From Lanius collurio (taxonomy: Eukaryota; Chordata; Aves; Passeriformes; Laniidae): a stretch of 64,000 bases of DNA. Position numbers and translations under genes: made by a program. The notes under the pieces are model-generated. The model had not been told where the DNA came from. It did no database searches and saw nothing but the letters and a program-made list of their open reading frames with translations. Positions 3,038 through 5,598 of the stretch are shown piece after piece; positions within the stretch are counted from its first letter, which is position 1; each line of letters opens with the position of its first letter. The stretch spans positions 5,589,449 to 5,653,448 of the forward strand of contig JACBWW010000046.1 of assembly GCA_020086605.1 (NCBI GenBank), given 5' to 3'.

Positions 3038-3336
3038 TGTGGAGGTGCCTTCCCCTGAAATCCCTGGAGGAGGGACCCTGCAGGGTACGGATCTGCTTCT
3101 GTCCCTGTCCCCATGTCACGTGTGCCCCATATCTGTTCCTGATTGGGTGGTTTGGGTGTGCCCAGGGGGCCCGGGAGTGAGAGAGCAGGGTCTGATGACT
3201 GAGTTGGCCTGGGAACTCCATCCATGGCGGCTGGAGGAATAAAATAATCCCTGAACATCTACAGAAATATCGCTTCATCTTTCCTTCCAAGTCCATCGCT
3301 GTCTTATATATGTTATAAGGATTCCCCGTTACAACA
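3038..3336 (+). repeat. 5' LTR
   Basis: 299 bp, TG...CA ends, homologous along its whole length to 5306-5598. A polyadenylation signal AATAAA lies at 3238-3243, followed by a conserved stretch around ACATCTACAGAAATATC. Homology between the LTRs stops exactly at TGTGGAGG on the left and ACAACA on the right, which fixes the boundaries. Confidence 0.9.
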
Positions 3337-3338
3337 AA

Positions 3339-3356
3339 TGGTGGAGATATGTGGAC
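3339..3356 (+). other. Primer-binding-site candidate
   Basis: Starts TGGTGGAGATATGTGG two bases after the 5' LTR end. Position and the leading TGG (complement of the tRNA CCA end) fit a primer site. The rest is too diverged for me to name the tRNA. Confidence 0.5.
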
Positions 3357-3587
3357 ATTCGATCCCTGAAAACGATTTCTAAAGGTCCGGAGTACACCGA
3401 TGAGAATTGTGAGTAATTGAACTTTCTTATTGTCTTGTTTTTGGCTGTACTTTCTGACCAGATGGAGAAATCAGAGGAGCTGTGGCTATCTGAGCCACAG
3501 AGAAAAATGTACTTGGAAGTGAAAGAAATTCTAGCGAAACAAAATACAAAACAGGACCCAGGACATTTAGAACTCTTCTTTAACTGA

Positions 3588-3932
3588 CTTTTCAATAATT
3601 TCTTTTATGTCACTCGAGACTTAATTTTTGATGTTGGTTTTCCTGTGACTAGAGGGGACAATTTTTGGAAAGAAATCGATGAGTTGATAATGATTCAGTC
3701 AAAAAGTGGAATGGTAGCAGAATTGATCCTAGCTTCTTTTGCAATTGAAGATGCTCTCATAAAGCATATACCCGGTCCCAGTAACACAGAGGTGCCTGTG
3801 GCTGAGGTGCCTGCGGTGGAGGGGCCCAGCCCCCCTAAAAGCACAAGCCGTAGAGCAGACCCCATCCCTGTATCGGAGTGCAATCCCAAACAACAGCGGG
3901 TGAGAGAGGGACAACGAAGACACTGGATGTGA
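3588..3932 (+). pseudogene. Unrecognised open stretch of the LTR element, possible gag remnant
   Basis: About 115 codons open in one frame up to a TGA at 3930-3932, without a convincing in-frame ATG. The first half (around GDNFWKEIDELI) could be helical; the second half is rich in Pro, Ser and Lys/Arg, as linkers are. Its place between primer site and captured domain is where gag would begin, but I see no zinc knuckle or major homology region. It is in the same frame as the cold-shock domain further down, so both may once have belonged to one reading frame. The gag assignment is inference from position only. Confidence 0.4.
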
Positions 3933-4502
3933 GAGTGCATTCCTAGGGGTCTCTGAGGTATTCTTACAGTGAATAAAGAAGGACAGACAGTAGAAATAGC
4001 TGCTGAAAAACGCAAAGCGTGAGCCGTGAAAGCAGAGGCACGAGATGCGAGAGCAGCGGCGAGGGTGGCAGCGGCATGACCCGGCAATGGCTGCCCCGCG
4101 CCGTGTGGCAAGCAACAGTCCGAGCCCAAGAGCGAGAAAGGCAGTGGCGTTAGTGGCAGTCGCTATGACGACCACAGTGAGCCACGCCAAACCGAGCCGG
4201 AGCGGCGTGGGGGTGAGAAGAGAACCGTGCTAGCACCCAGCAGCAACACATCTGTAGCTGACAGCAGCAGCAGCAGCGGCAGCCCCGGCGTTATGAAGCC
4301 GCGCACACGCAAACGCCTCACAGGGCACAGCTGCGCAGCCGCGCAAACGCCCAGAAAGCGTGGAGCTGCAGTCTCGTGGAAGTCCAGAGGAGAAGCGAGC
4401 ACAGCACCAAACGGTGGTGCAGAGGTGGCCGAAGGCGGAGCAGCCGGCAGGGTCAGCGTGCACCAGCACGGCCCGACCAGACCCGCACGGTCCCACACGT
4501 GA
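3933..4502 (+). other. GC-rich Arg/Ala/Ser-coding middle of the LTR element
   Basis: Markedly richer in G, C and CpG than the rest of the element and the surrounding intron. It reads as low-complexity Arg/Ala/Ser/Pro-rich peptide, including a run of CAG/CAGC repeats near 4262-4280. In the frame of the cold-shock domain it is open from 4227 to a TGA at 4500-4502 and broken by stops before 4227. It may be the GC-rich 5' end of the captured cellular cDNA, since Y-box proteins have Ala/Pro/Gly-rich N-termini, or diverged gag. I cannot decide between these. Confidence 0.4.
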
Positions 4503-5090
4503 TCCCGAGGAGTCCAGACCCCACAACAGGAACGTGCTGGCAGCCCCGGCAGTCCCGGCTGCGGCAGCTCCAACGCGAGAGCAAGAAAAACTGAAGGTGA
4601 AAGCAAGAACAAAAAAACTTGGAAAAATGAAAAGGTTATCGCAGCTAGGGTTTTGGGAACTGTAAAGTGGTACAATGTAAAGAAAAATTACGGTTTCTTA
4701 TTGAAAAATGATACTGGATAAAGTAGTTTTTTGGCCATAAATCTGCTATTGTAAAAAAATAACCCCAAAAGTGATGTTCCAAGCTTAGAAGAAGGAGAAA
4801 GAGTAGCATTTAAAATTGTGCAAGGAAGGAAGGGCCCACAGGCCGCATGTCTTACAGGCCCTGGAGCTGTCCCTGTCAAAGGCAGTAGATATGCTAGACA
4901 ATACCCCCATAATCCCTATCCTTTCCCTTATCCCACCTTCCCCTTTTATCCCATGCCCCTTTATCTCCCACATATGCCCAGCCCAAATTTCCCTTTCTGG
5001 CTCCCCTCACAAAACCAGGCTTTTCCATTCACCATGAACCCCTTTGCAATGCTGATGGGGGGGATGAAAAGGAGGGAGGGAAGAAATTAA
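4503..5090 (+). pseudogene. Decayed Y-box (YBX-family) cold-shock domain carried by the LTR element
   Basis: Cold-shock domains of Y-box proteins bind single-stranded RNA and DNA and act in mRNA packaging and translational control. From about 4626 the frame reads NEKVIAARVLGTVKWYNVKK and then NYGF, matching the start of the YBX domain, including the aromatic RNP1 region. The far half of the domain (about 4761-4880) is also clear: KNNP, then a GERVAFKIVQGRKG segment, then GPGAVPVKGSRYA; the VKGSRYA end is closest to YBX2-type proteins. Between them the domain is broken: TAA at 4719-4721, TAA at 4752-4754, and a local frame slip, so that the RNP2 segment is lost in the main frame. After the domain the frame stays open to a TAA at 5088-5090 and encodes an unusual Pro/Phe/Tyr-rich tail (about 4890-5060) unlike the basic/acidic repeats of cellular Y-box proteins. 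It is not functional as a gene in this copy. Confidence 0.88.
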
Positions 5091-5288
5091 CTGTCATTTT
5101 CTAAGATTCCAACAGGTACAAAAAAGAAAATCCCTTCCTCAGTTTCCATCTGAAGCATGCTCAAATCCTGTCTCCCTTATGATGCTCCAAAGAAAATCTG
5201 TTTGGACATCTGGGGACTCAAGATAGTGGCTTCCTTTCCTTTGAAAATGTTTTGTTGTTTATCCAACTGTTTCCAATGTTCTCCATTT

Positions 5289-5300
5289 AAAAAGAAAGGG
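5289..5300 (+). other. Polypurine tract
   Basis: AAAAAGAAAGGG lies five bases before the 3' LTR. This is the expected plus-strand primer site and confirms the orientation of the element. Confidence 0.75.
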
Positions 5301-5305
5301 TGTAT

Positions 5306-5598
5306 TGTGGAGGTACCTCTCCCCTGAAATCCCGGGGGGAGGGACCCTGCAGGGTACGGGTCTGTCCCTGTCCCTGTCCCCATGTCACGTGTGCCCCATA
5401 CCTGTTCCTGATTGGTTGGTTTGGGGGGACCAGGCCCAGGAAGAGATGAGGGTCCCATGACTGGGGTCTGCTGGGAACTCCAGCCATGCGGCTGGAGGAA
5501 TAAATCATCTCTGAACATCTACAGAAATATCACTTCATCTTTCCTTCCAAGTTCATTGCTATCTTATACTTGTCATAAGGATTCCCAGCACTACAACA
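5306..5598 (+). repeat. 3' LTR
   Basis: 293 bp, same ends as the 5' LTR and roughly 85% identical to it by eye. AATAAA lies at 5499-5504. The differences are spread along the whole length and include small indels, so the two LTRs have diverged since insertion. Confidence 0.9.

What the first reader, a model, noticed from the sequence alone, without database searches (positions are those of the whole stretch)
3038..5598. LTR retroelement that carries a cellular Y-box cold-shock domain
Seen: two full LTRs, a 6-bp target duplication, primer-site and polypurine candidates, and between them, in sense orientation, a recognisable YBX-family cold-shock domain (VLGTVKWYNVKKNYGF ... GPGAVPVKGSRYA). Known: retroviruses can acquire host cDNA, usually oncogenes, and Y-box proteins bind and package RNA. 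Inference: a class II-like element captured a germ-cell or somatic YBX cDNA, perhaps to serve as an RNA-binding module. No pol remains, so it would have been a packaged, helper-dependent element. I do not know of a described family with this make-up, but I could not search.
Basis: partly seen in the sequence, partly recalled or inferred. Interest (0 to 1): 0.9.

Follow-up and report, generated by a model that had tools for sequence, protein, structure and literature searches.

The report
Bird retroelement carrying a Y-box domain
This is one worn-out copy of a numerous bird retroelement whose single long reading frame joins an unidentified front domain to a cold-shock domain like that of the cell's own Y-box RNA-packing proteins; the domain was likely captured from a host gene, shows the mark of selection among the copies, and is predicted to bind the element's own RNA.

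Summary
Window 3038-5598 is an LTR element (LTRs 85% identical, 6-bp target duplication TGCCTG). It belongs to a large family: of 38 other independent LTR places read in the same genome, 16 are solo LTRs and 22 keep internal sequence; 21 of those 22 keep the cold-shock domain. Ten of 22 two-LTR loci, window included, have their own exact 6-bp duplication. So the domain moved with the element.

A search with that N-domain alone (from copy L035) returned three proteins, all from New Caledonian crow, all with the cold-shock domain; one stands for 24 sequences.

In 40 copies, shared variants in the domain (4 copies or more) are 20 silent, 15 replacing, 0 stop; singletons 30, 96, 9 (p = 1e-4). Tail, linker and one N-domain variant show no such sign.

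Not shown: the donor gene (host search did not complete), the helper virus, any Gag identity of the N-domain, and function. Packaging of its own RNA into helper particles is inferred.

The parts
3032..3037 (.). left target-site duplication TGCCTG
   Evidence: sequence; exact pair with 5599-5604
3038..3336 (+). 5' LTR, 299 bp
   Evidence: 85% identical to 3' LTR
3339..3356 (+). primer-site candidate; in other copies close to a tRNA-Ala 3' end (tRNA sequence recalled, untested)
   Evidence: sequence and counterparts in copies
3462..3770 (+). N-domain of the frame (variant A), about 100 residues, no known family; end approximate
   Evidence: frame; relatives; no Pfam or PDB match
3771..4628 (+). 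G+C-rich linker in the same frame, broken here
   Evidence: open in L035 and L040; no sign of selection over 4053-4562
4629..4895 (+). Y-box-type cold-shock domain, broken by stops in this copy
   Evidence: PF00313 in two pieces; YBX1/YBX2 structures; selection among copies
4896..5087 (+). proline- and aromatic-rich tail
   Evidence: conserved in make-up in crow P0001 and P0009; no sign of selection
5289..5300 (+). polypurine run before the 3' LTR
   Evidence: sequence and counterparts in copies
5306..5598 (+). 3' LTR, 293 bp
   Evidence: 40 of 40 scored genome matches, 3408 first-look candidates
5599..5604 (.). right target-site duplication TGCCTG
   Evidence: sequence

Best explanation
This is one decayed copy of a multi-copy LTR retroelement family whose single long frame joins an unidentified N-domain to a Y-box-type cold-shock domain; the domain was likely captured from a host YBX messenger RNA, and the protein would bind the element's own RNA and help it into particles made by an unidentified helper retrovirus. 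Shown: the family, its separate insertions, the fused frame, a like protein in a crow, and a silent-change bias in the cold-shock domain among variants shared by copies. Inferred: host capture, RNA binding (contact residues kept), dependence on a helper (no pol in the copies read), and the packaging role. I commit to packaging because a betaretrovirus is reported to assemble with host YB-1, so an element with its own Y-box module would bring that help along.
For: Domain in 21 of 22 copies with internal sequence. Own 6-bp duplications, exact in 10 of 22 two-LTR loci against 0.43 expected for all 39 loci from permuted flanks. 15 of 16 N-domain copies have the domain at the expected spacing. Open stretches across the joints: L035 337 codons, L040 369, L046 319. 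N-domain search finds three crow proteins, all with PF00313. Shared variants 20 silent/15 replacing/0 stop against singletons 30/96/9, other frames 6/23/6 and 3/27/5. Contact residues W, F, F, H together in 35 of 40 copies. [quoted passage not shown]
Against: No copy read is open from start to end. The N-domain matches no Gag family by sequence, and its model is of low confidence (mean pLDDT 41). No sign of selection in tail, linker or N-domain variant B; variant A has five shared stops. Shared indels are not biased to multiples of three (7 of 14). The contact residues are not exceptional: 15 of 200 random sets of four codons are kept as well. No helper and no expression data were found. The donor tree does not separate YBX1, 2 and 3.
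Confidence: 0.5

Rival explanations
1. Same family and same captured domain, but the protein acts outside packaging: it would steady or silence the element's RNA in the cell, as YB-1 does with cellular mRNA, or act on the LTR promoter, which holds a Y-box core CTGATTGG.
For: Y-box proteins are general mRNA-binding proteins (established); the core CTGATTGG stands in 37 of 60 LTRs; selection on the domain fits any RNA-binding use.
Against: The core is not better conserved than the rest of the LTR (rank 155 of 284 windows); no expression data.
Confidence: 0.33
2. The domain is a passenger: captured once, without a use, and copied along because it sits between the LTRs.
For: Tail, linker and N-domain variant B show no sign of selection; most copies are broken (31 of 40 in domain plus tail).
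Against: Silent bias of shared variants in the domain, in its own frame only; intact proteins in crow, one cluster of 24; domain kept in all three make-ups.
Confidence: 0.12
3. A YBX retropseudogene landed inside an older LTR element.
For: Processed pseudogenes of YBX genes are common in vertebrates (recalled).
Against: Domain in 21 of 22 copies with internal sequence at separate sites; same frame as the upstream ATG; crow proteins of the same make-up.
Confidence: 0.01

Closest known systems
Crocodilian endogenous retroviruses with captured KIT-ligand or nectin3 (PMC4299795, passages read)
   Same: a host coding sequence without introns sits between LTRs, is shared by several insertions, and its frame shows purifying selection
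   Different: those are a signalling ligand and a surface protein, in elements that keep viral genes; here it is an RNA-binding domain fused to the only long frame of a short element
Cellular Y-box proteins YBX1, YBX2, YBX3
   Same: cold-shock domain with its short flanks, P0009 residues 285-375 against YB-1 E 1.6e-32; RNA-contact residues kept
   Different: the long basic/acidic C-terminal part is replaced by a proline/aromatic tail; an unidentified N-domain stands in front
Acute transforming retroviruses with captured oncogenes (recalled)
   Same: defective element with a host cDNA in frame with a viral 5' part, needing a helper
   Different: not an oncogene; a heritable family of many copies; the viral identity of the 5' part is not shown
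Crow ERVK insertion corCorLTRK1b near NDP (PMC7341801, passages and one section read)
   Same: 2.25 kb in all with a 296-bp LTR, close to the short class of this family (2.23-2.25 kb)
   Different: the paper's two element-internal primers match 11 copies no better than shuffled primers; no evidence that it is the same family

Membership tests
LTR retrotransposon / endogenous retrovirus-like element | two LTRs with TG...CA ends, target duplication, primer site, polypurine run | tested here: met
LTR retrotransposon / endogenous retrovirus-like element | multi-copy, each insertion with its own duplication | tested here: met
   exact in 10 of 22 two-LTR and 7 of 17 one-LTR loci
Class II (ERVK-like) endogenous retrovirus | 6-bp target duplication | tested here: met
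   that class II makes 6 bp is recalled
Class II (ERVK-like) endogenous retrovirus | pol or Gag related to class II retroviruses | tested here: inconclusive
   no pol to place; N-domain matches no Gag family in Pfam or PDB
Host gene captured by a retroelement | host-like coding sequence, intronless, sense, within the LTRs, shared by separate insertions | tested here: met
Host gene captured by a retroelement | identified donor gene | tested here: inconclusive
   tree of 17 sequences does not separate YBX1, 2, 3; host genes of this bird not fetched (last try)
Y-box protein | cold-shock domain with RNA-contact residues | tested here: met
Y-box protein | long alternating basic/acidic C-terminal part | tested here: not met
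   proline/aromatic tail instead
Retroviral Gag | matrix, capsid and zinc-knuckle nucleocapsid domains | tested here: not met
   Pfam finds only PF00313 at its cut-off in P0008-P0010, L040 and L046

The most novel reading that the evidence does not exclude
A bird retroelement put a captured host Y-box cold-shock domain where a retrovirus has its nucleocapsid: its one protein is a Gag-like N-domain plus a cellular RNA-packing module that marks the element's RNA for loading into another virus's particles, and with it the element spread to hundreds of copies as a parasite of a parasite.
Probability: 0.25. Interest if true: 0.92.

Novelty: new variant of a known kind. Interest (0 to 1): 0.75.

Why it matters
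Host genes captured by retroelements are mostly growth or surface genes. An RNA-binding module captured from a Y-box protein, fused into an element's only long frame and carried by many copies in at least two birds, would show a retroelement taking over the cell's mRNA-packing machinery. It gives a natural test of what a nucleic-acid-binding module must do for an element without pol. It also explains four 'uncharacterized' crow proteins as likely retroelement products.

Tried and rejected
Retropseudogene inside one element: rejected by the copies. L009 is 99.1% identical to the window over 6.3 kb with flanks, so the same locus in a second assembly copy; dropped from the counts. Link to the crow NDP insertion by length: primers match no better than shuffled ones. 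Y-box core in the LTR as a special feature: not above average in conservation. Structure of P0009: mean pLDDT 41, so no fold search was made. N-domain identity: none in Pfam or PDB. Viral contigs with P0009: no relative. First protein search, with a 108-residue window piece: nothing. Phase of shared indels: no bias. Pol in the window: ten open frames from both strands (of 35 listed) match no Pfam family; frames of L040, L045, L046 match only PF00313 or nothing. Host YBX genes: not completed. Primer tRNA: pattern search did not complete.

Rows dropped before counts: selection test, L010 and L043 as partial, L009 as duplicate; N-domain tests, L019 and L038; linker test, L040 and L044; tree, L064, the turtle and one fish sequence lost by my own text filter, and the script then stopped with an error after the tree was printed. 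One search failed and was replaced.

Full report
What is there. The window lies in a genome of 1.097 Gb in 2132 contigs. Window 3038-5598 has two LTRs, 85% identical, with TG...CA ends and TGCCTG on both sides. One frame, from ATG 3462 to a stop at 5088-5090, holds an N-domain, a G+C-rich linker, a Y-box-type cold-shock domain and a proline/aromatic tail; in this copy eight in-frame stops break it. The two readable pieces of the domain match Pfam PF00313 below its cut-off, and the second matches solved YBX2 and YBX1.

Copies. A genome search with the 3' LTR gave 3408 first-look candidates; 40 were scored and 40 matched. I read about 6.3 kb around the 39 besides the window's own (L027 is cut at 4.4 kb by its contig end). 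L009 is the window locus again with its flanks (99.1%). Of the other 38, 16 are solo LTRs and 22 keep internal sequence; 21 of these 22 keep the domain or most of it, and L027 has lost most of its interior. L010 is rearranged, its domain piece in reverse. In strict register, 10 of 22 two-LTR loci (window included) have an exact 6-bp duplication and 12 have five or six matching bases; of 17 one-LTR loci 7 are exact and 12 have five or six; permuted flanks give 0.43 exact pairs on average for the 39 loci, at most 3.

Make-ups. Class i is like the window. Class ii (L021, L035, L040, L047) has another 5' half up to about window position 4053. Class iii (L014, L038, L045, L046) has the same other 5' half and a shorter linker, 2.23-2.25 kb in all. 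The two N-domain variants are 35-36% identical as proteins, while the shared 3' part is 83-90% identical to the window in DNA in these eight loci. This suggests an exchange of 5' halves (inferred). LTR pairs differ by K2P 0.041 to 0.168, the window by 0.133, the sixth highest of 22 loci, so the window's copy is one of the older ones.

Counts with other parts. The domain DNA gave 1045 first-look candidates, 40 of 40 scored at 92-100%. The N-domain DNA of class i gave 320 candidates, 40 of 40 scored at 93-100%. For 16 of these 40 I read 301 bases where the domain should be: 15 have it, L071 does not. Candidate numbers are not confirmed counts.

One frame. In L035 the frame is open for 337 codons, from next to the first Met to just before the domain; in L040 for 369 codons from linker through tail; in L046 for 319 codons from N-domain into the domain. 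No copy that I read is open from start to end. A search with residues 1-115 of L035, which hold no part of the domain, returned three proteins at E 0.01 or better among 9 candidates, all from Corvus moneduloides and all with PF00313: P0008 (376 aa), P0009 (440 aa, 24 member sequences) and P0010 (369 aa). An earlier search with domain and tail of L021 had found a fourth crow protein, P0001, which lacks the N-domain, with Y-box proteins of fishes and a turtle and two proteins without a name. The crow N-domains are 71-72% identical to L035. P0009 has N-domain, domain and tail; P0008 ends after the domain.

Selection. I compared 40 copies of domain and tail: the window, 19 from the LTR loci and 20 fetched for likeness of the domain. 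Variants shared by four or more copies should reflect the spreading lineages, singletons mostly later decay. In the domain the shared ones are 20 silent, 15 replacing, 0 stop; singletons 30, 96, 9; Fisher p = 1.2e-4, and 3.8e-4 without CpG columns. With two or more copies as the limit they are 30, 45, 1. The other two frames give 6/23/6 and 3/27/5. Copies are related, so p is a guide only. Mean pairwise dN/dS is 0.40 (780 pairs). The tail shows nothing (p = 1.0). N-domain variant A shows it (21/18/5 against 22/67/7, p = 0.005, 11 copies, with five shared stops against); variant B does not (p = 0.75, 8 copies, where a wrong frame reaches p = 0.03); the linker does not (p = 0.13, 14 copies). Shared indels are multiples of three in 7 of 14, singletons in 16 of 37. 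Nine of 40 copies are open through domain and tail. Four residues that touch nucleic acid in YB-1 (W65, F85, H87: PMC8464072, passages; F74 recalled) stand together in 35 of 40 copies; 15 of 200 random sets of four domain codons do as well.

Donor. P0009 residues 285-375 match zebrafish YB-1 (E 1.6e-32) and YBX2 (2.1e-32) almost equally. A tree of 17 domain sequences sets eight window-bird copies with three crow proteins, and P0010 between them and the cellular proteins; YBX1, 2 and 3 are not separated (human sequences recalled; midpoint root). Residues beside the domain, such as AANRSH in P0001, recall YBX1 (from memory).

How it likely works. The interiors are short, under about 2.1 kb between the LTRs in the unnested two-LTR copies; ten open frames of the window match no Pfam family. 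Reverse transcriptase and integrase would therefore come from a helper (inferred; none found, none sought by pol). The primer site reads in several copies like a tRNA-Ala 3' end (for instance L043; the tRNA is recalled). The protein would start where gag starts. [quoted passage not shown]). An element with a Y-box module in its own protein could use it to load its RNA into helper particles. This is the least certain step.

Known or not. Host-gene capture by endogenous retroviruses is known, for example KIT-ligand and nectin3 in crocodilians (PMC4299795, passages). Seven full-text searches of one open library aimed at such a family (listings seen) showed no paper that describes it; subscription journals, Repbase and Dfam were not searched. 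The repeat may be in a repeat library; four crow proteins are in UniRef as uncharacterized.

Verdict. The finding is real and a family. An RNA-binding domain fused into an element's only long frame, with a sign of selection, is a new variant of host-gene capture.

Noticed in passing
49217-50094 (+): Six microRNA precursors in a row (mir-17 family three times, mir-19, mir-92, mir-363), a mir-106a~363-type cluster by its make-up (cluster name recalled).
   Followed up: no
whole window; G000:C45 and G000:C46: Contigs C45 and C46, both about 6.44 Mb, look like the same chromosome in opposite orientation: the window locus and further element copies recur at mirrored places. Two haplotypes, or sex-linked partners.
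   Followed up: partly
LTR, e.g. 5408-5415: A Y-box core CTGATTGG lies in the LTR of an element that encodes a Y-box-type domain; it stands in 37 of 60 LTRs but is not above average in conservation.
   Followed up: partly
18001-19000: A stretch of 75.7% G+C in a window that is mostly 30-50%, probably a promoter CpG island.
   Followed up: no
L020 end; L019; L010: L020's 3' LTR is followed by a second primer site, as in a tandem copy; L019 carries a reversed LTR nested near position 3700 of the window's scale, and L010 holds its domain piece in reverse.
   Followed up: no
P0010 (crow): This crow protein has the family's N-domain but a cold-shock domain closer to cellular YBX: an early branch or a second exchange with a host gene.
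   Followed up: partly
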